A stretch of DNA of 10,543 nucleotides, taken from the NCBI GenBank assembly GCA_027029065.1, contig JALVGO010000170.1, forward strand, positions 1 to 10,543, given 5' to 3'. This document shows positions 698-10,543 of this stretch, in pieces. The notes beneath the pieces were generated by a model. The model ran no database searches, was not told the DNA's origin, and was given only the letters and a program-made list of their open reading frames with translations. The translations under genes were made by a program, and so were the position numbers. Origin of the DNA: Sulfurovum sp. GTDB lineage: Bacteria > Campylobacterota > Campylobacteria > Campylobacterales > Sulfurovaceae. How positions within the stretch are numbered: the first letter of the stretch is position 1; every line of letters begins with the position of its first letter.

Positions 698-1609
698 ATG
701 AAAAAATATGTCAAAAGAGCACAACCCGTTGAGAGGATCATTGATATACTCAGGCGTCTGTATGCGTTTGAGCGTCTGTATGTCAGCAGGGAGGCAGAGC
801 AGTACGGGGTGGACAGCCGTACGATACGAAGAGATTTGAGGAAGATCGCCGATGCAGGCATACCGCTGCTCTCCAAAAGAGGGGAGTACCGCATAGATAC
901 TTCGCAGCTTAGCCGTATGAGCCGTCTGCCCTCGGCGCTACTGCATGCGTTTGCCTCCAATGCGGGGCTGAGCATCGAGTGTCTTGGCAGCGGCAGCGGG
1001 GAGGGGATACCGCTGATCTCATTTGCCATTGCCTACAGCGGTATAGACAGGCAGATCGCCGAGGCGATCATAGAGAGCATAGAAAAGGGATGCAAGTGCC
1101 GCTTTGTCTACACCAATAACCGCAACATCACTGGCATCAAAACTGTCTCACCCGTCAAGCTCTATACTGCCAAAGGCAAATGGTACCTGCTGGCAAAAGA
1201 GGATACCACTGCACAGGTACGTCCCTTTGACTTTTTAAAGATCAGAGACTTTGCTCTCCTTCCCAATATCCCTCAAGACTTGACCCCGGAGGAGATAGAA
1301 AAAGCCAACCGCCGCGCCTCTATCTGGAGCAGTGACGATGCCAAGCCCTTTGAGGTGCGCATCTACGCTTCTGCCTACGCCACCCGCTACCTCAAAGAGG
1401 TACCCCTCCATCCTTCCCAACAACTCGACATGCCACACAGTGACGGCACCGCCGAGTTTGTCTATACCATCACCCACCCTATGGAACTTCTGCCTGAAGT
1501 GAAGAACTGGATCCCTCATCTGCACATTGTTGAGCCAAGGTCATTAAGAGATGGTTTGAGAGAGGATGTGGAGAAGTTTTTGGCTGAAATGAATCAAATG
1601 GACATATAA
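698..1609 (+). CDS. WYL-domain transcriptional regulator
   Basis: The 303-residue protein has the three parts usual for WYL regulators. Residues about 10-62 form a DeoR/HTH_11-like winged helix (VSREAEQYGVDSRTIRRDLR, then a GIPL wing). Residues about 130-190 are a WYL domain with the literal motif W162-Y163-L164 in GKWYLLAKE. Residues about 215-300 are a C-terminal extension (WCX). WYL domains bind nucleic acid or nucleotide-type ligands, and such proteins often regulate defence operons, including CRISPR-Cas. It lies just upstream of the cas6 promoter in the same direction, so control of the cas operon is plausible but not shown. Its G+C content (one 60-base line, 901-960, counted at about 60%) is far above that of cas8b. 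The ATG at 698 has no clear ribosome binding site; homology-like sequence begins soon after it, so a much later start is unlikely. Confidence 0.9.
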   Translation: MKKYVKRAQPVERIIDILRRLYAFERLYVSREAEQYGVDSRTIRRDLRKIADAGIPLLSKRGEYRIDTSQLSRMSRLPSALLHAFASNAGLSIECLGSGSGEGIPLISFAIAYSGIDRQIAEAIIESIEKGCKCRFVYTNNRNITGIKTVSPVKLYTAKGKWYLLAKEDTTAQVRPFDFLKIRDFALLPNIPQDLTPEEIEKANRRASIWSSDDAKPFEVRIYASAYATRYLKEVPLHPSQQLDMPHSDGTAEFVYTITHPMELLPEVKNWIPHLHIVEPRSLRDGLREDVEKFLAEMNQMDI

Positions 1610-1653: not shown

Positions 1654-2331
1654 ATGAGTGTGATTACAATAACGTCGACGCTGCCTACCGCAACACTGCC
1701 GATACGTAGGGTATTGGCTGAATTGACACAAGCGTATTTATATACGCATTTTCCCAAAAAAGAACATGAAGGGTATGCTCATGCCAATGGAAAGGTATTT
1801 AAGTCAATGAATTTTAAAGCGTTTTACAAAGATCGTATCGTAACAATACTTTTTAGTGCCGTCAATAAGTCTTATGAAAAAGAGATTGCTATGGCGGTGT
1901 TGCGCGAGGGGCTTAAGCTTGGAGAGATTCATATCGCGCAAACGGAGATTGTGTTAAACGAGAAGTATCCCAAAAGTTTGCAAAGCGGCAAGATCAAAGT
2001 CAAAGGGTATGTCGCTGCGGCGATCAAAGACGGCAATTCGAACCAAAAGATCTATCTTGAGCCAAAAACCCATAAGTTTCAAGAGATCGTTCATAAGCAT
2101 ACGCTTGAAAAATATGAAACATTGATGCGCAAGCCGTATCGAGGCGACCTAAACATCATACCGCTTTATCAGGCACCAAAATCTCGTACCTTTTATTATA
2201 AAAAAGCACGTATCCGTTCATGGTGCGGTGTTTATGAGATAGAGGCAAATGAGGATATGTTGAAACTAATTCTTGATACGGGACTTGGTGCACATGTAAT
2301 GCAGGGACTAGGATTTGTGGAGGTTGCATAA
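1654..2331 (+). CDS. cas6: Cas6 CRISPR RNA endoribonuclease
   Basis: The protein (225 residues from this ATG) has the Cas6 layout: two ferredoxin-like halves and a C-terminal glycine-rich loop, GLGAHVMQGLGFVEV (about residues 210-224), the family signature that binds the repeat hairpin. Candidate catalytic histidines lie in the first half (H38 and H43, in EHEGYAHANGKVF). Cas6 cuts the array transcript 3' of each repeat hairpin, leaving an 8-nt 5' handle. Start choice: AAGGA (1650-1654) overlaps the ATG and cannot serve it, but lies 5 bases before an in-frame GTG at 1660, so the true start may be 1660 (two residues shorter). It is transcribed from the promoter just upstream. Its G+C (one line, 1981-2040, about 52%) is between that of the WYL gene and cas8b. 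If the crRNA-like element downstream is real, Cas6 would also process it. Confidence 0.9.
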   Translation: MSVITITSTLPTATLPIRRVLAELTQAYLYTHFPKKEHEGYAHANGKVFKSMNFKAFYKDRIVTILFSAVNKSYEKEIAMAVLREGLKLGEIHIAQTEIVLNEKYPKSLQSGKIKVKGYVAAAIKDGNSNQKIYLEPKTHKFQEIVHKHTLEKYETLMRKPYRGDLNIIPLYQAPKSRTFYYKKARIRSWCGVYEIEANEDMLKLILDTGLGAHVMQGLGFVEVA

Positions 2332-2344
2332 ATGAGAATGGATA

Positions 2345-2394
2345 CCGAAAACAATACATTCTATGTTTCAAATCCCATAGGGAATAGTTCTCGA
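2345..2394 (-). ncRNA. Candidate crRNA-like guide RNA (CreA-type antitoxin)
   Basis: On the minus strand TCCC (2383-2380), TAT, GGGA (2376-2373) forms a tight hairpin followed at once by TTTGAAAC (2372-2365). A short stem, then exactly eight bases ending in GAAAC, is how many type I-B repeats look after the Cas6 cut site. The next bases, from 2364 downward, read ATAGAATGTATTGTT and match a site upstream of mazF (13 of 15). A CATAAT hexamer (2405-2400, minus) would start transcription near 2394, just before the repeat-like part; TATAGT (2433-2428, minus) is an alternative. In CreTA modules a crRNA-like RNA directs Cascade to the toxin promoter. A convincing second repeat on the 3' side was not found; the guide would run into the end of cas6. 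This is inference: the genuine array repeat is outside the window. Confidence 0.55.
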
Positions 2395-2426
2395 TATCCA
2401 TTATGCAATTCTATCGAAATTTTTTT
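2391..2426 (+). terminator. Weak terminator-like hairpin with T-run after cas6
   Basis: TCGATA (2391-2396) and TATCGA (2412-2417) are perfect 6-bp inverted repeats with a 15-base loop, followed within two bases by seven T residues (2420-2426). The stem is AT-rich and the loop long, so at best it is a weak intrinsic terminator for transcripts reading through cas6. Alternatively the T-run is simply part of the T-rich upstream region of the mazF promoter. Confidence 0.3.
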
Positions 2427-2444
2427 AACTATACACTCTATTAA
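2427..2444 (-). promoter_or_regulatory. Candidate Cascade target upstream of mazF
   Basis: Read on the minus strand from 2441 to 2427 this is ATAGAGTGTATAGTT. Against the guide ATAGAATGTATTGTT it matches at positions 1-5, 7-11 and 13-15; only 6 and 12 differ. The three bases on its 5' side, where a type I PAM would be, are TTA (2444-2442). The PAM position coincides with the expected -35 region of the mazF promoter (-10 box at 2466-2471). The protospacer also contains TATAGT, a possible minus-strand -10 box, so binding could silence both divergent transcripts. The PAM preference of this system is unknown. Confidence 0.5.
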
Positions 2445-2465
2445 ATATTTTAAGTTCATTATCGG

Positions 2466-2471
2466 TATGAT
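2466..2471 (+). promoter_or_regulatory. Candidate mazF promoter (-10 box)
   Basis: TATGAT matches the -10 consensus at five of six positions. It is preceded by a strongly T- and A-rich stretch and has no clear -35 hexamer, as is usual in Campylobacterota. A start near 2478 would give a leader of about 28 bases including the AAAAGG ribosome binding site (about 2490-2495) of mazF. Confidence 0.45.
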
Positions 2472-2505
2472 TTTGTACGTAAAAGTGTTAAAAGGTTCTA
2501 TTTTT

Positions 2506-2883
2506 ATGAAAAAATATGATGAATGGAATGAAGTAAAAAAGAAAATTGACACCCAAAGAACCATATATACTAAAATAGGCGAGATTTTTTTTGCCTATCT
2601 CGGTGAAAATATTGGTTATGAACAGTGTGGAAAAGGCGAAAATTTTTTAAGACCGGTGGTAGTGTTTAAAAGATTCGGCAAAAATGCTATTTTGGCGATT
2701 CCGTTAACAACTAAACCGAAAGAGGGGAGGTATTATTTCAGTTTTTCATTCAAAAGCGACAAAGAGAGTGTTGCTTTGCTCTCACAAATCAGATTTTTGG
2801 ACACACGAAGACTGTTCAAAAAAATAGGAAGAATGAAATCGGAAGAATATGAAAAACTCAAAAGAAAATTTTATGAATTGTAA
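2506..2883 (+). CDS. MazF/PemK-family toxin (endoribonuclease) inside the cas operon
   Basis: From the ATG at 2506 this encodes 125 residues of a MazF/PemK-fold toxin. Visible family features are an EIFFAYLG first strand, NIGYEQCGKGENFLRPVVV with the conserved Arg (R49), the PLTT turn with the conserved Thr (T68/T69), and LLSQIRFLDTRRLFKKIG near the end. R and T at these places correspond to the catalytic pair of MazF RNases, so activity is likely. Such toxins cut mRNA or other RNA and stop growth. AAAAGG lies about 10 bases upstream and the protein begins MKKYDEWNEVKKK, a typical start for this subfamily. The frame is open back to ATG 2332, which has a good GGAGG 8 bases before it, but those 58 residues do not resemble a MazF. 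No protein antitoxin gene precedes or follows it; the crRNA-like element in the upstream gap is the candidate antitoxin. Composition is AT-rich like cas8b. Confidence 0.85.
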   Translation: MKKYDEWNEVKKKIDTQRTIYTKIGEIFFAYLGENIGYEQCGKGENFLRPVVVFKRFGKNAILAIPLTTKPKEGRYYFSFSFKSDKESVALLSQIRFLDTRRLFKKIGRMKSEEYEKLKRKFYEL

Positions 2884-2944: not shown

Positions 2945-2988
2945 ACATATTATACCATAGAAAATATTATGTGTCAATGTATTATCGG
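2945..2988 (+). promoter_or_regulatory. cas8b upstream control region with several -10-like boxes
   Basis: TATTAT, one base from the -10 consensus, occurs three times: 2948-2953, 2965-2970 and 2980-2985. Any could start a cas8b transcript independent of cas6. Between them, at 2957-2972, ATAGAAAATATTATGT matches the crRNA-like guide at 12 of 16 positions (1-6, 9-12, 14, 16), with ACC on the PAM side. That match has two adjacent seed mismatches (7 and 8), so it is a weak hint of Cascade-mediated autoregulation. ATTATCGG at 2981-2988 is repeated exactly at 2458-2465, next to the mazF -10 box. Confidence 0.35.
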
Positions 2989-3014
2989 CAAAAAGTTAAA
3001 GAAGGTGAATACTG

Positions 3015-4781
3015 ATGGGTGATATCATAACTACATTTGCAAAAATCGGCTCGCATTATCTTGAAGATGAAAAGAGAGTCAAAAATAAAGCTTATGAATA
3101 TAAAAGCATAAAAGTGTATCTCTTGGATATAGCAAATAAATCGATAGAACCGTCCATTAATATCCCTTATGAAGATTTGATTATCACACGTTTCGGCATA
3201 GGCTCCAATAGTGGCAACCTTTTTCCAATACTCCCTTTTCCAAATTATACTTCGGATCAAAAAAAGAATTTTGATCTTGTAGAAAAAATGATTCGAGGTA
3301 TACTTAAAGCCAATAAAAATCTTTTGTCTTTTTTTAAGGAAGATGAGATTAGTGAAAATGAGATATTAACTATTCTCTCTTCTATGTATGACACTTTTTT
3401 TGATGAGTTGAAAGAACAGTTGCAAAAACTTGAAAAATATAAAGAAAAAGGCAAAGTTGCTACCTACTTATCACTCTCTTATCACAACCGACCTGTCTCT
3501 GCCTATTTTAAAGATATTTATGAACAGTACCTAAACAAAAGCGAAAAATCTACTCTGAAAGGCTTTGATATCGTCACCAATGAACAAGGGGTAGGGGGTG
3601 ATGCAAATCTGGCATTTTGTTCGGTGAATGAGTTGCCGACCAAATTAAAATCTGTTAAACACAGGCTTTTACCACTTTCTCATCAAAGCGCTAAAAAAGT
3701 CAAAATCGGTTTTGATGCGATGGATAAAATGCTCTCTCATAACTTTTATGGACTTAAATTAGCTATTATGCCTACAGTTTTGAGTGATGATGAAAAATTG
3801 TATGGAGAGATATTAGAAATTTTGGAAAAGAGTGCAAAAGGAAAGATTTCTGAAGTCAAAGAGAGCGAAAGCTACATCAACTATTTCATAGAGAGTGTAG
3901 CTGAGAGTGAAAAATCTTTACCGGTGCTAAACACTATACTTTTTTATAATAAAAGCAATGCAGCAGTTGACGTATTATTGCAGATTGATGATATTTTACC
4001 ATCGTTTATCACGCATATTGCCAAATCAATGGAGCAATATAATATAAAAGCTTTCAAAGAAAAAGATAGCAAAGATAGTGAAGAAACAATCTATTTACAA
4101 AATCTGTTTGATGATCGTCTGGAGATTATGAATCTCCTTCTTTCGAGTCAAAAAATAGATGTTGATGTTTTTACAGAAAAACTTTCACAACTCATTTACT
4201 GGGGAAATATCAACAAAAAATATGCCTATCCTGTTGATTGGTCAAAGTATTTTAACGGATATTATTTCCATCGAAGTATTGAAGCAATAAATCGATATGT
4301 GCAATTGTTTAGTGAAATAAATAAATTTAAAAAGAGTTTTATACTGCAAAAGGAGTGCGATGTGAGTGAAACAGAAAACAGACAAAAAATGATTGAAGAG
4401 TTAATGCAAAACAGTCCGTTTTTAGAGAATAATGTTCTGAAAAGTGCCTATCTTTTGGGTATGCTTTCAAGTGCTATTATGAATTGGCAATATGCTGTGA
4501 GTGGTACGGATAGTTACAACCGATGGCTTAATAGTAGTGGTGTTATCAACAAGGATAGTTTGCCCCGTATCTGGAAAAAAGCGGAAGAGACAGTACGAAA
4601 ACTGAATGCTACTTCCGGTAAAGGAAATAAAACGCTCAATGCGATTATGGAGATGGTGATAGAACAAGCTCCACAGGCTTTTATTTCTGAGGAGATAGTG
4701 AAAAGCGCTTATGTTTCCCTGGCTTTTGCAATGGGTGGCACTGACTATACAAAACATATTAAAAATAGAAAGGATGCATAA
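3015..4781 (+). CDS. cas8b: Cas8b (Csh1-type) large subunit of type I-B Cascade
   Basis: This 588-residue protein fits the TM1802/Csh1 Cas8b family by its length, by its place immediately before cas7-cas5-cas3, and by segments such as GKVATYLSLSYHNRPVSAYF and KVKIGFDAMDKMLSHNFYGL. Cas8b recognises the PAM and starts R-loop formation in the Cascade complex. Its start has GAAGG (3001-3005) nine bases upstream. The C-terminal part, from about residue 450, is the helical small-subunit-like region and can be translated separately (see the internal Cas11 feature). An oddity: many Csh1 proteins carry paired CxxC zinc-ligand motifs, but only isolated cysteines are visible here (LAFCSVN and KECDVS). 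The gene is very AT-rich (line 3301-3360 about 25% G+C by hand count). Family assignment is by context and general resemblance; this is the most divergent protein of the set. Confidence 0.85.
   Translation: MGDIITTFAKIGSHYLEDEKRVKNKAYEYKSIKVYLLDIANKSIEPSINIPYEDLIITRFGIGSNSGNLFPILPFPNYTSDQKKNFDLVEKMIRGILKANKNLLSFFKEDEISENEILTILSSMYDTFFDELKEQLQKLEKYKEKGKVATYLSLSYHNRPVSAYFKDIYEQYLNKSEKSTLKGFDIVTNEQGVGGDANLAFCSVNELPTKLKSVKHRLLPLSHQSAKKVKIGFDAMDKMLSHNFYGLKLAIMPTVLSDDEKLYGEILEILEKSAKGKISEVKESESYINYFIESVAESEKSLPVLNTILFYNKSNAAVDVLLQIDDILPSFITHIAKSMEQYNIKAFKEKDSKDSEETIYLQNLFDDRLEIMNLLLSSQKIDVDVFTEKLSQLIYWGNINKKYAYPVDWSKYFNGYYFHRSIEAINRYVQLFSEINKFKKSFILQKECDVSETENRQKMIEELMQNSPFLENNVLKSAYLLGMLSSAIMNWQYAVSGTDSYNRWLNSSGVINKDSLPRIWKKAEETVRKLNATSGKGNKTLNAIMEMVIEQAPQAFISEEIVKSAYVSLAFAMGGTDYTKHIKNRKDA
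4362..4781 (+). CDS. cas11b: Cas11b small subunit from an internal start in cas8b
   Basis: Inside cas8b, in the same frame, a GTG at 4362 is preceded by AAAAGGAG (4348-4355) with a 6-base gap, the strongest ribosome binding site in the gene. Translation from it gives 139 residues starting MSETENRQKMIEELMQ, mostly helical, ending at the cas8b stop. In type I-B, I-C and I-D systems the small subunit is known to be made by internal translation of the 3' part of the large-subunit gene, and its size there is similar. Here the SD-like sequence also encodes LQKEC of Cas8b. Several copies of Cas11 would line the belly of Cascade and hold the non-target strand. No separate cas11 gene is present in the operon, which supports the reading. 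Confidence 0.7.
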   Translation: MSETENRQKMIEELMQNSPFLENNVLKSAYLLGMLSSAIMNWQYAVSGTDSYNRWLNSSGVINKDSLPRIWKKAEETVRKLNATSGKGNKTLNAIMEMVIEQAPQAFISEEIVKSAYVSLAFAMGGTDYTKHIKNRKDA

Positions 4782-5729
4782 ATGAAGAAAAAAGAGATAC
4801 TGTTTTTGTGGGACGGTGAAAACTGGAATCCAAACGGTGATATGTTAAGGGAAAATGCGCCAAGGGTCGATGAAGAGACAGGTGTGGCGGAAGCAACAGA
4901 TGTTCGGATAAAAAGAACGATAAGAGATGAATTGATAAAAAGAGAGGGTGATTCGGTTGTTTTTATCAAAGAGTATAAACGTGATGAAAATATTCTTGAC
5001 TGTAAAACCGCGATCAGAGAAAATGAAATCAATATCAAGCAAAGTAAAGCAGATCTGGAAAAAGAGATTTTAGAGCGATTTTTGGATATCAGGGCATTTG
5101 GTGGTGTTTTACCGATTTCTGACAAAGATGAAATGAAAAAAGATAAGGAGATTACAACAGCCGGTGTTCAATTTACAGGACCTGTACAGTTCCGTATGTC
5201 AAAATCGCTGCACCGTGTACATCTGCAACACATCAAAGGAACAGGTGCTTTCGCCAGCGACTACTCTGATACAGATGCCAAAAAACAGAAGCAGCAGGCA
5301 ACTTTCAGAGAAGAGGATTTTCTCAGTTACGCTCTTTTTGCAACATACGGTATTATGGACAATTACAATGCCAAAAAGACAGGTTTTAGTGAAGAAGATG
5401 CCGGGAAGATTATCGACGCCCTTTGGTACGGTACAAAAAATCTCATCACCCGTTCCAAGATGGGACAAACACCGAGGTTTATGCTCATTATCACCTACAA
5501 AGATGACACTTTTGCAGGAGATTTAAACAATTCCGTCAAATTTGTCGCAAAAAAAGATGAAGAGGCGGTACGAAGTATCAACGACTATACGATAGATTTT
5601 TCCAATCTCAAAGCGAAACTACAGCGGTATAAAGATGCCATAGAAAAAGTTGAATATTTTGTGGATTATGATTTTGAGGTCAATCATAAAGAGCAATTTG
5701 AGAGTCATTGGACAAAGATAGAGCGCTGA
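4782..5729 (+). CDS. cas7: Cas7 (Csh2-type) backbone subunit of type I-B Cascade
   Basis: The 315-residue protein opens with KKEILFLWDGENWNPNGD and then RVDEETGVAEATDVRIKRTI, the characteristic Csh2/Cas7 start (an RRM-type first strand, the NPNGD turn and the TDVRIKR segment). Further family features are the RAFGGVLP segment around residue 105 and the FTGPVQFRMSKSLHRV stretch around residue 130. About six copies polymerise along the crRNA spacer and form the Cascade backbone; in I-B it has no nuclease role. The ATG follows the cas8b stop with no gap, and AAAGGA (4769-4774) lies 7 bases upstream, so translation is probably coupled. It is followed after one base by cas5. Length is normal and no key segment appears missing. 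Confidence 0.95.
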   Translation: MKKKEILFLWDGENWNPNGDMLRENAPRVDEETGVAEATDVRIKRTIRDELIKREGDSVVFIKEYKRDENILDCKTAIRENEINIKQSKADLEKEILERFLDIRAFGGVLPISDKDEMKKDKEITTAGVQFTGPVQFRMSKSLHRVHLQHIKGTGAFASDYSDTDAKKQKQQATFREEDFLSYALFATYGIMDNYNAKKTGFSEEDAGKIIDALWYGTKNLITRSKMGQTPRFMLIITYKDDTFAGDLNNSVKFVAKKDEEAVRSINDYTIDFSNLKAKLQRYKDAIEKVEYFVDYDFEVNHKEQFESHWTKIER

Positions 5730-5730
5730 G

Positions 5731-6441
5731 ATGTCAGTTGTTGCATTTAAGTTAAAAGGTGATTATGCACACTTCTCGCATCCGGCTACGATCTACTCCT
5801 CATTGACTTATCCTGTGCCGCCCAAAACAGCTATTATGGGATTTTTGGGGGCTTTGATCGGGGAAGAAGAGCATTTCAGATTGCGAGATATCCTTTACAG
5901 TGTCAAAGTCAACCGGGAGATAGTCAAAAAGAGTTTTGTTTTTAACGGTATTAAATTTGCACTCTCTAAAAATATGCATATCAAAGAGGGATATCAAAAT
6001 GTCAAAGAGAAGAAGCAGTTTTACAGAGAGCTTATCTGTACCCCTGAATATACCGTCTTTGTCGATCTTTCCCGGCTCACAGAGAATTATCGGCAGGCTA
6101 TAAAAGATGCACTGAAAAAACATCAAACCAAATTCACCCCCTATCTTGGTATCAATTTTTGTATTGCAGATTTTGAGTGGATAGAGATTGAAAGATATGA
6201 AAAAATCGATGATGCATTATGCGAAATAGATACCTTTACCAGAAAAGAGGATTTTGAGTTTGATATGGATAATTATAACGTCAAACTTACAACGGCACAT
6301 ATGGCGTGTGATGTGGAGGAGGGGAGGTTTTTTAAAGGTTTTCAGGAATTTATCATCGAAATAAGCGGTCAAAAGTCTATTCGCTCTAAAAACAGAGACA
6401 ATATTTATCAGATCAACGACTATAAGGTCTATTTTGTCTGA
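5731..6441 (+). CDS. cas5: Cas5 (I-B type) Cascade subunit
   Basis: The N-terminus, VVAFKLKGDYAHFSHPATIYSSLTYPVPPKTAIMGFLGALIG, carries the Cas5 RAMP signature: first strand, then a P-P-K-T-A-I-x-G-F-L-G helix start. The protein is 236 residues, normal for Cas5b. It caps the 5' handle of the crRNA and contacts Cas8b. Because the operon has its own Cas6, Cas5 is expected to be non-catalytic, unlike the type I-C form. Its ATG lies one base after the cas7 stop, and its end overlaps the start of cas3 by 8 bases, so cas7-cas5-cas3 are likely translationally coupled. The ribosome binding site is weak (a GATAGAG-like stretch), which also suggests coupling. Confidence 0.92.
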   Translation: MSVVAFKLKGDYAHFSHPATIYSSLTYPVPPKTAIMGFLGALIGEEEHFRLRDILYSVKVNREIVKKSFVFNGIKFALSKNMHIKEGYQNVKEKKQFYRELICTPEYTVFVDLSRLTENYRQAIKDALKKHQTKFTPYLGINFCIADFEWIEIERYEKIDDALCEIDTFTRKEDFEFDMDNYNVKLTTAHMACDVEEGRFFKGFQEFIIEISGQKSIRSKNRDNIYQINDYKVYFV

Positions 6442-8596
6442 AACATTTCTCTCTCATCCTGGCAAACCCTATGAAGAGCATATCCGGCGGATGCTCGATG
6501 AGAGTGATACCAAACTGGAACAGGCTGTTAAATGCTTTCATGATATTGCCAAACTAAAACACAATTTTCAAATCTATATACGAGATACTACCCAAAACGT
6601 AAAAGATAAAAATCACTCTCTGCTTTCAGCCTATCTTTTTGTGCTCAACCACAAGTTTGATGATCTTGAGATGCTGTTTGGTTTTTTTAGTATCGTTTCT
6701 CATCACAGCAGTGTTGAAAATTTTGCACAGATAAAAGAAGCGAACAAAAATCTTGGCGAGTATTGTGAAACACTTAAAGAGCTGGACTTTTTGGAGGAGG
6801 TAATTGCACATGCAAAAATGTTAGATCTCTATCCCCATATCGAAGGGAAGAGGGAAAAACTCAAAGTATTGTCTCAAAATTTTAGAACCTATCTGATGCA
6901 TCGAAAATTTAGAGATAAGTTCTCTTACGATGACTTTGTAGCATTTAAAAAACTCTATGCTTCACTTATCTATAGTGACAAGTATGAAGCAATATTTTCT
7001 CTGCCTAAAGAGAAGAAAAAGAGAGTTGATGAAAAAACAGTGGATGATTATATTGCGTCTCTGCCCTATCATGAAAAAAGAGATAATTTCAGGCGATATG
7101 TACTCAGTCATTTTGATGCTGATCAAAAACTTTTCACGTTAACGGCTCCGACAGGATACGGTAAAACACTGACAGCCTTACAGTTTGCACTAAAATTTCA
7201 CAAAGAGAAGATCATCTTTGCACTTCCTTTTACCTCTATCATCGATCAGACGGAAGGTATCATATCGAACATTTTCGAGCAGAGCGATATTGACATTTTT
7301 AAGGTACATCACAAAACAATAATAGATGAAAGTGTCGATGAAGACAGGTACTCTCAGGTGAAATTTTTGATGAGTTCTTTCAGTGGTGAAATCAATATTA
7401 CAACCCTTTATCAGATCATATTCGCACTCTTTGGGAACAGCAATAAAGACAATGTAAAGTTCAATCAGTTCAAAAAAGCCGTTGTGATTATTGACGAGGC
7501 ACAGGCTATACCGTATCAGTTCAGACAGGACTTCATGAAAGTTTGTGAAATCATCTCCCAAAAGCTTGATACGGTCTTTATCTTTATGTCCGCAACAATG
7601 CCTGTTGTCAACGGATTTACAGAGATATCAAATCTTGAATATTTTAAACATCAAAACCGTTATATTCTCAAGTGGTTAGATTTAGAAAATGGACAAGATA
7701 GTCTGATCAAAAAGATAGAAGATGAAGCACAAAACAAACATACACTTTGTGTAGTCAATACCATCTCTAAGGCACAAGAACTTTACTTGTATTTTAAAGA
7801 TAAGTTTGACTGTTTCGCCCTCAACGGCTATATGACGGATGAAGATAAACAAAGGTGTGTCAAAACAGTTGGTGAAAAATTAAAGCAAGATGAGAAAAAA
7901 GTGTTGCTGATCTCTACGCAATCTATCGAAGCAGGGATTGATCTTGATTTTGAAGTTGGGTTTCGTGAAGTGGCTCCAATAAGTTCTATCATTCAGACAG
8001 CCGGGCGGGTAAATCGCCACTTTGGAGAGAAGCAGGGAGTTCTTTATATCTTTGAAGATATTTGTGGATACAGCGATCTTATCTATGGTGATTTGCAACA
8101 GATCAGTAAAGCGATTTTTGAACTTTTCAAAAACGGCGATGTGGAAGAAAAAGAGATTTTGGAAGTGAGTGAACGCTACTTTTCAAAGATACACCACCAG
8201 CTTGAGAGAATGATGCTTGAAGAGAAGATGCAAGAGCTGGCATTTGGGGATATTAACCAGATGATAACCGAAGAGATGGATAGTGGAAATTATAAGCAGT
8301 TTATTGTCATTGAACCCTATAATGGTTTTATTCGTGAAATAGAAGATGAGATTTTAAAAATCAGAAAAGAAGTTTCTGACAAATTCAAACAAAAAGACCG
8401 GATTGAAGGGGTTGTCAAAAAACTATCAAATTACGGTGTCAATGTATCTATCAAAGATATAGAGAAATTTCAAACCAATCTGGAGAAGGTGCAATATTTG
8501 CATGAAATGCTTTATCTTCCTTTTGGGGCAGAAGAGTATGACAGTGATTATGGAATTAAGAAGTATCAGTCAGAGGCGGAAGAGGCTTTTTCATAA
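6434..8596 (+). CDS. cas3: Cas3 HD nuclease-helicase
   Basis: The 720-residue protein has an N-terminal HD nuclease (about residues 1-190) and an SF2 helicase. HD ligands visible are H16, H36-D37 (CFHDIAK), H61, H90-H91 (SHHSS) and D182. Helicase motifs are Walker A APTGYGKT (238-245), the II box IIDEAQ (354-357 DEAQ, with Gln in place of the more usual His), SATMP (386-390), TQSIEAGID (495-503) and QTAGRVNRH (521-529). Cas3 is recruited to the Cascade R-loop and degrades the displaced strand in the 3' to 5' direction. The start is a TTG at 6434 with AAGG 6 bases upstream; it is preferred because H16 of the HD site would be lost from the next ATG (residue 20). It overlaps cas5 by 8 bases, and its stop overlaps the ATG of cas4 by one base. 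Confidence 0.95.
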   Translation: MSETFLSHPGKPYEEHIRRMLDESDTKLEQAVKCFHDIAKLKHNFQIYIRDTTQNVKDKNHSLLSAYLFVLNHKFDDLEMLFGFFSIVSHHSSVENFAQIKEANKNLGEYCETLKELDFLEEVIAHAKMLDLYPHIEGKREKLKVLSQNFRTYLMHRKFRDKFSYDDFVAFKKLYASLIYSDKYEAIFSLPKEKKKRVDEKTVDDYIASLPYHEKRDNFRRYVLSHFDADQKLFTLTAPTGYGKTLTALQFALKFHKEKIIFALPFTSIIDQTEGIISNIFEQSDIDIFKVHHKTIIDESVDEDRYSQVKFLMSSFSGEINITTLYQIIFALFGNSNKDNVKFNQFKKAVVIIDEAQAIPYQFRQDFMKVCEIISQKLDTVFIFMSATMPVVNGFTEISNLEYFKHQNRYILKWLDLENGQDSLIKKIEDEAQNKHTLCVVNTISKAQELYLYFKDKFDCFALNGYMTDEDKQRCVKTVGEKLKQDEKKVLLISTQSIEAGIDLDFEVGFREVAPISSIIQTAGRVNRHFGEKQGVLYIFEDICGYSDLIYGDLQQISKAIFELFKNGDVEEKEILEVSERYFSKIHHQLERMMLEEKMQELAFGDINQMITEEMDSGNYKQFIVIEPYNGFIREIEDEILKIRKEVSDKFKQKDRIEGVVKKLSNYGVNVSIKDIEKFQTNLEKVQYLHEMLYLPFGAEEYDSDYGIKKYQSEAEEAFS

Positions 8597-9108
8597 TGCA
8601 ATCTTACTTCGATCCCACCCTTATCACCGGCACGCTCGTCCACTACTACGTCACCTGCAAACGAGAAGCGTGGCTCTACAGTCGCCGTATCCACGCCGAT
8701 CAGTGGGATGAAAATATTTTGATGGGCAAGGCGCTGGCGGAGATCAAAGAGGAGCAGTTGTCTCAGTTTCCCTTTTCGCATCTAAAATTCGACAAGATCG
8801 GAAAGCAGCGCGGGCACTATCTGGTGACTGAGTACAAAAAGACGCTCAAAAATCCGGAGGGTGCGAAGATACAACTTCTGTTTTATATGTGGCAGCTCAA
8901 AACCTCTCTGGGGCTCAAACAGATCAACGGTAAAGTCATCAGCGGAAAACAGGTGCTCTTTGTGGAAGGGAGCGAGGAGAATATGCAAAAAATGGCGGAG
9001 CTTGTCGAAGAGATTGCTGCATTTCTGGAGTCCGAAAAGCCGCCGCCGTTTCGCAAGATCGCATTTTGTAAAAAGTGCGGGTACAGGGATTATTGTTTTG
9101 AGGAGTAG
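8596..9108 (+). CDS. cas4: Cas4 Fe-S exonuclease for spacer acquisition
   Basis: This 170-residue protein is a RecB-family nuclease with an iron-sulfur cluster. The four cluster cysteines are C21 and C158, C161, C167 (CKKCGYRDYC). Nuclease residues visible are D66 (KFDKIG), E79-x-K81 (TEYKK) and Q93-x-x-x-Y97. The His usually seen in motif I (G-x-x-x-H-E) is replaced: here the stretch is MGKALAEIKEE, with Ala48 at that place. Cas4 trims prespacers and helps select the PAM and orientation during integration by Cas1-Cas2. The ATG overlaps the cas3 stop by one base (TAATG) with AGAGG 10 bases upstream. From this gene on, base composition rises sharply (line 8641-8700 about 57% G+C against about 42% in line 8521-8580). 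Confidence 0.95.
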   Translation: MQSYFDPTLITGTLVHYYVTCKREAWLYSRRIHADQWDENILMGKALAEIKEEQLSQFPFSHLKFDKIGKQRGHYLVTEYKKTLKNPEGAKIQLLFYMWQLKTSLGLKQINGKVISGKQVLFVEGSEENMQKMAELVEEIAAFLESEKPPPFRKIAFCKKCGYRDYCFEE

Positions 9109-9110
9109 TG

Positions 9111-9389
9111 ATGTATGTGATTTTGTTTTATGATATCGCTGACAGAAGTCTCAAAGAGCGTGATAACAGCAGGCGTATCCGCAAAGCGGTGGAGAAGTAT
9201 CTCTCCCGTGTGCAGTACTCGGTCTTTGAGGGAGAGATCCGTGAGAGCGATTTGAAAAAACTCAAAGCCTATCTGCGCAAACACGCCCAGAAGGAGCTGG
9301 ACTCTATTGTCATCTACGAATCGACAAGGCTTAACTATACCGAGCGTATTGTTATCGGCGTGGATAAAAACGAAACCCTCTTTAGTTAG
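9111..9389 (+). CDS. cas2: Cas2 adaptation protein
   Basis: MYVILFYDIADRS at the start, with the conserved Asp (D9) at the end of the first strand, and the YSVFEGEI segment define Cas2; the product is 92 residues, a normal length. Cas2 dimers bridge two Cas1 dimers in the spacer-integration complex. The ATG at 9111 is chosen because AGGAG (9101-9105) lies 5 bases before it; a GTG at 9108 is in frame but only 2 bases from that site. The gene lies between cas4 and cas1, whereas type I-B operons usually end cas4-cas1-cas2. There is a 2-base gap after cas4 and an 8-base gap before cas1. Confidence 0.93.
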   Translation: MYVILFYDIADRSLKERDNSRRIRKAVEKYLSRVQYSVFEGEIRESDLKKLKAYLRKHAQKELDSIVIYESTRLNYTERIVIGVDKNETLFS

Positions 9390-9397
9390 GAGCAGAT

Positions 9398-10396
9398 ATG
9401 CAAAAAACAGACCGAACACACTTTCTGATGAATGCCGGCAGGCTCAGACGGCAGGATAATAATCTCTATTTTGACCGATACGACGACGAAGGTGAAGTAA
9501 CAGGCACGAAAATACTCCCCATCAATGCCATTGATGAAATCTACATCCTCGGCAGAGTTGATATCGACAGTTACACTATTGCATTTATTGCTGACAACAA
9601 CATATTACTTCACTTTTTCAGTCCCTATCAGAGTTTTCGCGGTAATTTTTTCCCAAATACCTCCAACTCCGTCAACAAAAGTGGCTTTGTCCTGCTGCAA
9701 CAGCTTCGCGCATTTGACGACGCCAAGCATAGACTTTATATCGCCAGAGAGATCACCCGCGGACATATCCAGAACGGTGCGGCAAATTGCAAGCGTTACC
9801 GCATACCGTTTGAGAGCGCCGAATACCTGAGTGCACTCGATCGGGCTGTGAGTATCGGGGAAGTAATGGCTGCAGAGGGTGCCTTCAAGAAAAACTACTA
9901 TCAAGCATGGAACAGCATCATCAAAAATCAGCGCAGCTTCAAGTTCACTACCCGCTCCAAGCGCCCTCCCACCGACAAACTCAACTCCTTTATCTCCTAT
10001 GTCAATACACGGGTATACAATGTCGTACTGAGTGAAATTTATAAAACCGAACTGGATCCACGTATCGGTTTTTTGCACGAACCCAATTATCGAAGCCTGA
10101 GTCTGCATCTCGATATCGCCGAGATCTTCAAACCCATCATCGGCGACAACCTGATCTTTACGATGCTCAACAAAAACGAGATTACCGCCAAAGATTTCAA
10201 AACCGACAGTGGACGTATCCGCTTTACTAATGAAGCCGTCAAAAAGATAGAGTTAAAATTTATCCAAAAACTCACCGAACAGACTACTCTTGGCAAACAA
10301 ACACTCACTTGGAGACAGGTGATACGACATGAAGTGAACCGCCTAAAGAAAACCATCTGTGAATATAGTGAATACAAACCGTTCGTATTGTCTTGA
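9398..10396 (+). CDS. cas1: Cas1 integrase
   Basis: The 332-residue protein has the full Cas1 layout: a beta N-terminal domain, then a helical catalytic domain with E160 (MAAEGAFKKNYY), H227 (IGFLHEPN), D239 and E242 (LHLDIAEIFKP) at the spacing usual for the family. Cas1 catalyses the two transesterifications that insert a prespacer at the leader end of the array. AGGAG (9388-9392) is 5 bases before the ATG and overlaps the cas2 stop. It is the last gene of the operon, followed by a leader-like region, which fits an array starting just outside the window. All active-site residues are present, so adaptation should be functional. Confidence 0.96.
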   Translation: MQKTDRTHFLMNAGRLRRQDNNLYFDRYDDEGEVTGTKILPINAIDEIYILGRVDIDSYTIAFIADNNILLHFFSPYQSFRGNFFPNTSNSVNKSGFVLLQQLRAFDDAKHRLYIAREITRGHIQNGAANCKRYRIPFESAEYLSALDRAVSIGEVMAAEGAFKKNYYQAWNSIIKNQRSFKFTTRSKRPPTDKLNSFISYVNTRVYNVVLSEIYKTELDPRIGFLHEPNYRSLSLHLDIAEIFKPIIGDNLIFTMLNKNEITAKDFKTDSGRIRFTNEAVKKIELKFIQKLTEQTTLGKQTLTWRQVIRHEVNRLKKTICEYSEYKPFVLS

Positions 10397-10543
10397 TAAA
10401 GCGTTTTTTAAGGTTTGGAGGAATCTGAAAAAAGGGAGTATTTCTTGATCTCATTGTGCAAATTCAGAGAAATATAAGGAAGTTTTTTGGCTTATATATT
10501 GATTGATACATCGGTTTTTAGGCATTTTTTTGCTATTATGAGA
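10397..10543 (+). promoter_or_regulatory. Probable CRISPR leader with outward promoter
   Basis: No gene is seen in the 147 bases after cas1. The stretch is AT-rich and ends in TGCTATTAT (10531-10539), a TG-extended -10 box preceded by T-runs, typical of Campylobacterota promoters without a -35. It would start transcription a few bases past the window end. An inverted repeat TATTTCT (10439-10445) / AGAAATA (10468-10474) lies within it. Position directly after cas1, composition and outward promoter together suggest the leader of a CRISPR array, but no repeat unit is present to confirm it. Confidence 0.55.

What the first reader, a model, noticed from the sequence alone, without database searches (positions are those of the whole stretch)
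2332..2883. CreTA-like module: MazF-family toxin between cas6 and cas8b with a crRNA-like element in place of an antitoxin
A toxin gene with intact MazF catalytic Arg and Thr sits in the cas operon with no protein antitoxin on either side. The gap before it holds a CRISPR-repeat-like hairpin with an 8-nt handle, whose following bases match a site just upstream of the toxin. CreTA modules, in which Cascade plus a crRNA-like RNA represses a toxin, are known between cas6 and cas8 in the haloarchaeal type I-B system, where the toxin is a small RNA. A MazF-type protein toxin in a bacterial I-B operon would be a distinct version. It would make the cell dependent on Cascade and punish its loss or inhibition by anti-CRISPRs.
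Basis: partly seen in the sequence, partly recalled or inferred. Interest (0 to 1): 0.93.

Follow-up and report, generated by a model that had tools for sequence, protein, structure and literature searches.

The report
CRISPR-repressed MazF toxin module
In the CRISPR operon of a Sulfurovum-like bacterium, a crRNA-like RNA appears to guide the cell's own CRISPR complex to switch off a MazF RNA-cutting toxin, so that losing or blocking CRISPR would release the toxin; related genomes show the same wiring with other genes in the toxin's place.

Summary
Antisense to the cas operon, between cas6 and mazF, lies a solitary CRISPR-repeat copy (2365-2394) whose last 19 nt are identical to array repeats of seven related genomes. 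The same guide-target-PAM pattern occurs in 30 of 54 readable cas6-downstream regions of Campylobacterota; 30 of 30 best sites carry TTA (background 4.2%). The target abuts a promoter whose first gene is cas8-like in 14 loci (CreR-like); MazF (5 loci, three behind a small peptide), PIN (2) or small membrane-like peptides follow in most others. New here: MazF as the CRISPR-repressed toxin; a closing stem instead of a second repeat; and, convergent to mazF, a perfect sigma70 promoter with a two-hairpin RNA that accompanies most solitary MazF relatives examined, so 'no antitoxin' may be wrong. Best reading: a CrePA/CreTA-type module, a new variant of a known kind. Expression, repression and toxicity are untested; the window's own array lies beyond its end.

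The parts
1654..2331 (+). cas6, which would process the crRNA-like RNA
   Evidence: PF01881 65.8 bits, cut-off 23; TIGR01877 56.1 bits, just under its cut-off of 58.65
2337..2351 (-). 3' arm of the stem that encloses the element
   Evidence: pairs with 2388-2402; score 31 against a null maximum of 23 in 200 shuffles
2347..2364 (-). pseudo-spacer psiS (guide), 5' end at 2364; overlaps the 3' arm
   Evidence: follows the handle directly
2365..2394 (-). pseudo-repeat psiR: hairpin CCCTATGGG and 8-nt handle TTTGAAAC (2365-2372)
   Evidence: last 19 nt exact in arrays of seven relatives
2388..2402 (-). 5' arm of the enclosing stem; probable start of the RNA
2408..2413 (-). -10-like TAGAAT of the RNA's presumed promoter (weak)
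2427..2441 (-). target of psiS: nt 1-5, 7-11, 13-15 match; nt 6 and 12 do not
   Evidence: the only site in the window with at least 9 of 10 seed matches and TTA; 30 of 30 loci have an equivalent
2442..2444 (-). PAM TTA
2466..2471 (+). -10-like TATGAT of the presumed mazF promoter (weak, 8 of 12 with its -35)
2506..2883 (+). mazF, PemK/MazF-family endoribonuclease, 125 aa
2892..2948 (-). candidate convergent small RNA with two hairpins (2921-2935 and 2898-2916)
   Evidence: ends set by hand
2949..2977 (-). TTGACA-17-TATAAT promoter of the convergent RNA, 12 of 12
3015..4781 (+). cas8b (TM1802 family)
   Evidence: PF09484 79.2 bits, cut-off 25.1; TIGR02556 below its cut-off
4782..8596 (+). cas7 (Csh2, type I-B), cas5, cas3
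8596..10396 (+). cas4, cas2, cas1
10535..10543 (+). probable first bases of the first array repeat; the window ends here
   Evidence: alignment with the leader and first repeat of L057

Best explanation
A CRISPR-repressed protein-toxin module. A minus-strand RNA (about 2402 to 2337) with one repeat copy is cut by Cas6, which leaves an 8-nt handle and a short guide, and loads Cascade. Cascade binds 2427-2441 beside PAM TTA, with too little pairing to bring in Cas3, and blocks the promoter in front of mazF, and probably also read-through into cas8, since in relatives the same promoter drives cas8 directly. If Cascade is lost, titrated or blocked by an anti-CRISPR, mazF is released and its endoribonuclease stops growth. 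The convergent RNA behind mazF may be a second brake. Shown here: repeat identity, guide-target-PAM pattern and its recurrence, MazF family and predicted fold. Inferred: transcription, Cas6 processing, Cascade binding, repression, toxicity, and the addiction or anti-anti-CRISPR role.
For: The last 19 nt of psiR are exact in arrays of seven relatives. The best 17-nt match of psiS, any PAM and either strand, has TTA in 30 of 30 loci; mismatches within nt 1-12 fall at nt 6 (15 loci), nt 12 (17) and nt 8 (1) only; in a tested CreA nt 6 and 12 tolerate mutation and the other ten of the first twelve do not (PMC8501985, passages). Window: 0 of 3000 shuffles with seed plus PAM. A -35-like box lies -4 to +7 nt from the PAM in 29 of 30 loci. 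An enclosing stem is possible in 30 of 30 loci; in 18 no shuffle of 200 did as well. All five MazF genes found downstream of cas6 in such operons have guide and target and lie in three places of the MazF tree. In L056 and L120 guide and promoter lie between an antitoxin-like ORF and a PIN gene that are contiguous in L121 and L123, where no guide was found.
Against: No expression, binding or toxicity data. The window's mazF promoter is weak (8 of 12; none at 9 of 12). 24 of 54 readable regions gave no such RNA. In 14 of the 30 no toxin follows, so the guide is not tied to toxins. MazF with the guide, 5 of 30 against 0 of 24, is p = 0.045 (about 0.055 by hand without L117 and L126, which show no cas8), and the loci are not independent. 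26 of the 30 loci were found by scans that required at least 9 of 10 seed matches. In the tree the cas-locus label is hardly clustered (53 of 500 shuffles as low) and three changes may be gains or losses. In the window, L055, L056 and L120 the MFE fold pairs the start of psiS with the repeat hairpin, which could hinder processing. The frame 2332-2883 is open through the element, its ATG follows the cas6 stop directly, and homologue P0002 is also 183 aa, so translation from the cas6 message is not excluded.
Confidence: 0.73

Rival explanations
1. CreR-like autoregulation with a passenger: the selected function is repression of the cas8-cas7-cas5-cas3 promoter by Cascade, and a MazF cassette happens to have landed between promoter and cas8.
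For: In 14 of 30 loci the gene behind the target is cas8 or a large ORF in its place (L096 untested), starting about 53-59 nt past the PAM. Solitary MazF of this family also occurs in many other places: tandem copies, next to what look like restriction genes, fused to other genes (named by eye). G001, 94.5% identical to the window over 2980-8134, has neither mazF nor guide and only a remnant of a convergent RNA.
Against: Several unrelated toxin or peptide genes sit in the same slot at similar spacing; a released MazF should be costly (recalled). This reading and the best one can both be true.
Confidence: 0.16
2. The real antitoxin is the convergent RNA: mazF and the two-hairpin RNA form a self-sufficient RNA-controlled toxin-antitoxin cassette, and the CRISPR guide is secondary for mazF.
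For: 29 of 39 MazF copies have a 10-12 of 12 sigma70-like promoter downstream and antisense, against 4 of 39 on the same strand and 1 of 39 antisense within the gene; the window's is 12 of 12. 28 hand-trimmed RNAs share two hairpins, mean folding z -2.4. G001 keeps such an RNA without mazF.
Against: 10 of 39 copies fall below 10 of 12. RNAalifold found no consensus pairs; no covariance model was made. It does not account for the guide and its target. A terminator or cassette end could look similar.
Confidence: 0.08
3. Relic: the guide once regulated this promoter but neither it nor mazF is active now.
For: The window's mazF promoter is weak. In L067 the mazF frame is interrupted. G001 lost or never had the module.
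Against: psiR, PAM and the ten seed positions are intact in the window; mazF is a full-length open frame with conserved Arg49; the same region is conserved in translation in P0002.
Confidence: 0.03

Closest known systems
CrePA (CRISPR-repressed protein toxin with crRNA-like antitoxin; Shu et al., Nat Chem Biol 2025, original not read)
   Same: A protein toxin whose promoter is repressed by the CRISPR effector with a crRNA-like CreA and is released when the effector is inhibited (review PMC12737573, section 3.3 read).
   Different: The described CreP typically has a KilA-N domain and acts on FtsZ; here the protein is a MazF-type endoribonuclease, and the RNA has an enclosing stem.
CreTA of haloarchaeal type I-B (Li et al., Science 2021, original not read)
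   Same: Module between cas6 and cas8; psiR-psiS; pairing at nt 1-5 and 7-11 with a PAM next to the toxin promoter (PMC8501985, passages).
   Different: RNA toxin that sequesters a tRNA, PAM TTC, usually two psiR; here a protein toxin, PAM TTA, one psiR.
Citrobacter rodentium type I-E Cascade-repressed CreT
   Same: Crra-like RNA on the opposite strand upstream of a toxin ORF that must be translated, target beside the promoter with a PAM (PMC12055562, passages).
   Different: Type I-E, between cas3 and casA; a 96-bp ORF without known relatives, not MazF.
CreR (crRNA-like autoregulator of cas operons; Liu et al. 2023, original not read)
   Same: crRNA-like RNA that represses the cas promoter (PMC12737573 and PMC13131331, passages); 14 of the 30 loci here look like this.
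   Different: No toxin in CreR as described; here mazF is the first gene behind the target.
MazEF, type II toxin-antitoxin
   Same: MazF family and fold.
   Different: No MazE-like ORF beside it.
Type III toxin-antitoxin (ToxIN, CptIN, TenpIN; recalled)
   Same: MazF-like ribonuclease with an RNA partner, if the convergent RNA proves to be one.
   Different: No tandem-repeat RNA upstream of mazF; the candidate RNA is convergent at the 3' end.

Membership tests
CRISPR-regulated toxins (CreTA, CrePA) | crRNA-like gene with a repeat-like psiR outside the array, in the cas locus | tested here: met
   psiR 2365-2394
CRISPR-regulated toxins (CreTA, CrePA) | psiS partly complementary to a PAM-flanked site at the toxin promoter, nt 1-5 and 7-11 | tested here: met
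   2427-2441 with TTA; the promoter itself is weak
CRISPR-regulated toxins (CreTA, CrePA) | Cas6 processing and Cascade-dependent repression | not testable with these tools
   needs RNA and reporter data
CRISPR-regulated toxins (CreTA, CrePA) | The regulated gene is toxic | not testable with these tools
   MazF family only
CreTA (type VIII) | Toxin is a small RNA | tested here: not met
   protein of PF02452; an additional RNA toxin is not excluded
CrePA as described | Toxin protein with KilA-N domain | tested here: not met
   only PemK_toxin in Pfam
CreR | Target in the cas operon promoter, no toxin | tested here: inconclusive
   mazF is the first gene; cas8b starts 131 nt after its stop and no plus-strand terminator was found between
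Type II MazEF | Adjacent protein antitoxin | tested here: not met
   no such ORF seen; by ORF list and position, no antitoxin profile search of short ORFs
Type III toxin-antitoxin | Tandem-repeat RNA antitoxin upstream on the same strand | tested here: not met
   only a 1.9-copy repeat inside mazF, at 2822-2848
MazF mRNA interferases | Fold and catalytic Arg/Thr | tested here: met
   Foldseek best 4mzp E 3.7e-8; Arg49 invariant, Thr/Ser at 68-69 in 15 sequences; that these are catalytic is recalled
Type I-B CRISPR-Cas | Cas7/Csh2 with Cas5, Cas8b, Cas3, Cas6 | tested here: met
   Csh2 247.3 bits, cut-off 171.55; Cas6, Cas5b and Cas8 models below their NCBIfam cut-offs but Pfam models above theirs

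The most novel reading that the evidence does not exclude
The cas6-cas8 junction of Campylobacterota type I-B is a docking slot under Cascade autorepression that has captured toxins of several unrelated kinds. The MazF captured here brings its own, unrecognised kind of antitoxin, a convergent two-hairpin RNA that marks a wide solitary-MazF family, so that one toxin answers to two RNAs: a crRNA-like guide at its promoter and a small RNA at its message or protein.
Probability: 0.32. Interest if true: 0.95.

Novelty: new variant of a known kind. Interest (0 to 1): 0.85.

Why it matters
If true, a classical ribonuclease toxin has had its transcription handed to CRISPR, and cas autoregulation (CreR) and CRISPR addiction (CreTA, CrePA) are one architecture that differs only in which gene follows the repressed promoter. 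That makes the origin of CRISPR-regulated toxins testable, since empty, single-toxin, split antitoxin-toxin and peptide-plus-MazF states coexist in one phylum. It also offers natural anti-CRISPR sensors, and points to a solitary-MazF family with a likely RNA partner that Rfam does not list in the 20 sources searched.

Tried and rejected
Gene start at 2332: not taken as the main start; 14 of 14 other sequences start at the codon aligned with 2506 or within three columns of it, though P0002 (not in that alignment) has the same long frame. A second psiR after psiS: none seen. RNAalifold on the small-RNA alignment A2 returned 0 pairs, I think because hairpin 2 was out of register; a second alignment, A4, was out of register there too, so no covariance model was built. 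Fixed pattern for the small RNA in 18 chosen genomes: 4 hits, 3 directly behind a MazF (G123, G088, G105), 1 elsewhere (G186), 1 control hit; too rigid to weigh. A check of the PAM through protospacers of array spacers was not tried. Paper searches listed no MazF, PIN or Campylobacterota case; Li 2021, Liu 2023 and Shu 2025 did not come up as papers there and were not read, and their supplements could list some of these loci.

Full report
What is there. The window carries two tRNA genes, a WYL/WCX-domain regulator, and a type I-B cas operon: cas6, mazF, cas8b (TM1802), cas7 (Csh2), cas5, cas3, cas4, cas2, cas1. The own assembly is not held. The nearest held genome, G001, is Sulfurovum sp. MAG M17 bin.038 (L054 = L137); its DNA is 90.4% identical over 975-2326 and 94.5% over 2980-8134, and the stretch between, where no blastn match was found, is the module discussed here.

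The toxin. The ORF of the finding (2332-2883) includes a 58-codon open stretch before 2506, where homologues start. The 125-aa product matches PemK/MazF and B. subtilis MazF by sequence (1ne8, E 5.1e-5); its model (mean pLDDT 83.7, residues 35-45 below 50) finds MazF structures first. Arg49 is invariant and residues 68-69 are Thr or Ser in 15 aligned sequences. That such Arg and Thr are catalytic is recalled.

The crRNA-like element. On the minus strand, 2394 to 2365, is a copy of the I-B repeat. Its last 19 nt occur exactly in arrays of G143, G116, G102, G126, G100 and G142 and G197. In one search, 12 of 200 relatives matched the 23-nt form with up to 3 mismatches, and the backward control pattern matched in 2 of 200; one of the 12 (G040) lacks the exact core. 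Single copies just upstream of cas8 in G088 and G117 led to the comparison. The window's own array is not seen; its last bases look like the start of a first repeat.

Target and PAM. A scan of 31 cas6-downstream gaps for sites matching a guide at nt 1-5 and 7-11, with no PAM asked for, gave in 18 of 31 an antisense repeat-like handle whose site on the same strand carries TTA; it also gave scattered hits with other PAMs, mostly at handle-like strings that are no repeat. More cas6 loci brought this to 26, and four with degenerate handles or an inverted target (L081, L083, L085, L125), set by eye, to 30. Taking simply the best 17-nt match in either strand, 30 of 30 have TTA, against 4.2% of trinucleotides. 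Mismatches in nt 1-12 are at nt 6 in 15 loci, nt 12 in 17, nt 8 in 1, nowhere else. Caution: 26 of the 30 were found by scans requiring at least 9 of 10 seed matches, so their seed is good by construction; nt 6 and 12 were left free. The PAM was free, but and 55 sites with 9 of 10 had to have TTA. In the window the match is nt 1-5, 7-11 and 13-15 (2441 to 2427). Seed plus TTA arose in 0 of 3000 shuffles for the window and in 1, 5, 1, 3 and 0 of 3000 for L055, L067, L128, L140 and L056; 13 of 17 with TTA arose in 21 of 3000 for the window. In a tested CreA, nt 6 and 12 are the tolerant positions and the other ten of the first twelve are needed (PMC8501985, passages).

How many loci. By my count, DNA downstream of cas6 could be read in 54 loci: 30 with guide and target, 24 without (L054, L057, L058, L059, L062, L063, L077, L078, L090, L095, L098, L117, L118, L121, L122, L123, L126, L127, L139, L143, L155, L156, L157, L159). 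L117 and L126 show no cas8 there. The 24 were scanned by script and not all checked by eye for degenerate handles, so 30 is a lower bound. Dropped because the contig ends in or soon after cas6: L076/L153, L119/L145, L124/L151, L129/L160, L131/L167, L132/L166, L135, L136/L169, L168, L170; L145 ends in a repeat-like stretch. cas6 hits of G303 and G525 were not fetched under those handles. Duplicates between calls were counted once; several loci are close relatives.

Geometry. The best sigma70-like promoter near the PAM has its -35 box -4 to +7 nt from it in 29 of 30 loci (for L125 the script used the wrong site, its target being inverted). Of those 29, 21 score 9-12 of 12; the window scores 8 (TAAATA-18-TATGAT) and L128 7. 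In 14 loci the next gene is cas8, or in L096 an untested large ORF, starting about 53-59 nt past the PAM: the CreR arrangement. Elsewhere another gene starts roughly 40-70 nt past the PAM: MazF in the window and L128; a 36-41-aa hydrophobic peptide and then MazF in L055, L067, L140; a like peptide alone in L133 and L125; other small membrane-like peptides in L079 and L087 and in L086, L092, L094; a PIN protein (PF01850, 49.3 bits) in L056 and L120. In L130 an Abi-like region (named by eye) follows further on, and L164 is unclear. The PIN frame overlaps the cas8 start in L056 and L120, and the peptide abuts it in L133 and L125, so these are probably co-transcribed with cas8 and co-repressed (inference).

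Structure of the RNA. In 30 of 30 loci the stretch 5' of the repeat copy can pair with a stretch starting at psiS nt 14-25, over 7-15 nt, with arms that differ between lineages; in 18 of 30 no shuffle of 200 did as well, in the other 12 between 1 and 18 did. Window arms: 2402-2388 and 2351-2337, score 31 against a null maximum of 23. An exact TATAAT lies 0-8 nt before the 5' arm in 12 of 30 loci, against 5.4% of random windows. No second repeat was seen; most known creA genes have two (PMC8501985, passages). I take the stem to set the 3' end or protect the RNA (inference). In the window, L055, L056 and L120 the MFE fold pairs the start of psiS with the repeat hairpin instead, which I cannot explain.

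Capture. A tree of 65 MazF rows, with few columns and 17 open forks, puts the five cas-locus MazF in three places: window and L055 inside a 13-row clade (98/99), L140 with L067, and L128. Strongly supported branches force at least three changes of the label; gains and losses are not told apart, 53 of 500 label shuffles were as low, and the context of the database rows P0002-P0011 in the window's clade is unknown. In L121 and L123 an antitoxin-like ORF and PIN are contiguous and no guide was found; in L056 and L120 guide and promoter lie between the same two genes. The partner ORF has no Pfam match above cut-off and is called antitoxin-like by position only. This reads as toxins taken from their own control and put under Cascade (inference). 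MazF with the guide, 5 of 30 against 0 of 24, has p = 0.045, about 0.055 by hand without L117 and L126.

The convergent RNA. Between mazF and cas8 the minus strand has a perfect TTGACA-17-TATAAT. Of 39 MazF copies, 29 have a 10-12 of 12 promoter within 200 nt downstream and antisense, against 4 of 39 on the same strand and 1 of 39 antisense in the gene. What follows is about 50-65 nt, trimmed by hand, with two hairpins, ending near the mazF stop; 28 examples have mean folding z -2.4. Rfam at its gathering scores found only the two tRNA genes in 20 sources. RNAalifold found no consensus pairs, so covariation is not shown. G001 has no mazF and no guide but keeps a like stretch close to that of L067, as an orphan antitoxin or a cassette scar would be. 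I hold antitoxin function at about one in three.

Known relatives. CreTA, CrePA and CreR were compared through passages of PMC8501985, PMC12737573 (passages, section 3.3), PMC12055562 (passages), PMC13131331 and PMC12948488 (passages). For PMC9458426 a term search gave no passage.

Verdict. The element is very probably a crRNA-like guide to a site just upstream of mazF; repression of mazF by Cascade follows by analogy with CreTA, CrePA and CreR; toxicity follows from the MazF family. It is not a strict CreTA (the toxin is not an RNA) nor a CrePA as described (no KilA-N), but works like them: a new variant. No printed MazF, PIN or Campylobacterota case came up in the searches named in Tried and rejected, with the key subscription papers unread.

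Noticed in passing
L099, L100-L115; 39 MazF copies: Solitary MazF relatives sit in varied places: a tandem triplet (L099), next to what look like hsdM/hsdS or other restriction genes (L104, L106, L107, L112, by eye), in frame with a CysN-like gene (L108, by eye), most with a convergent promoter and two-hairpin RNA at the 3' end. Perhaps a mobile toxin cassette.
   Followed up: partly
L055, L067, L140, L133, L125: A conserved hydrophobic 36-41-aa peptide (..LLG..F...TINI...KE) behind the Cascade target; in three of the five it precedes mazF. A possible small membrane toxin; no Pfam match above cut-off for two copies tested.
   Followed up: partly
L079, L087; L086, L092, L094: Two more kinds of small membrane-like ORFs in the same slot in family f10 of the held genomes.
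   Followed up: no
L056, L120 against L121, L123: The same antitoxin-like ORF and PIN pair exists contiguous without a guide, and split by guide plus promoter: a possible before and after of toxin capture.
   Followed up: partly
L062, L130, L157: A strong conserved hairpin upstream of Abi-like ORFs downstream of cas6; L157 has the hairpin without the ORF. It recalls the AbiF non-coding RNA (recalled, not tested; the L062 ORF has no Pfam match).
   Followed up: no
L057, L139, L143: Nucleotidyltransferase-like ORFs, with a HEPN-like partner in L057 and L143, between cas6 and cas8 without a guide found; named by eye.
   Followed up: no
window 2332-2505: An open frame in frame with mazF begins directly after the cas6 stop; P0002 (81% identical MazF) has a like 58-residue extension. 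Chance, or a cas6-coupled long form.
   Followed up: partly
window 2365-2394 with 2360-2365: The last handle base and psiS nt 1-4 can pair with the repeat hairpin; in L055 both sides differ from the window yet still pair. Seen in 4 of 30 loci as the MFE fold; 7 of 30 have a complementary 5-mer.
   Followed up: partly
window 698-1609: A WYL/WCX-domain regulator directly upstream of cas6, a possible further regulator of the operon.
   Followed up: no
L067, mazF: The mazF frame of this MAG is interrupted in its last third; the close relative L140 is intact.
   Followed up: no
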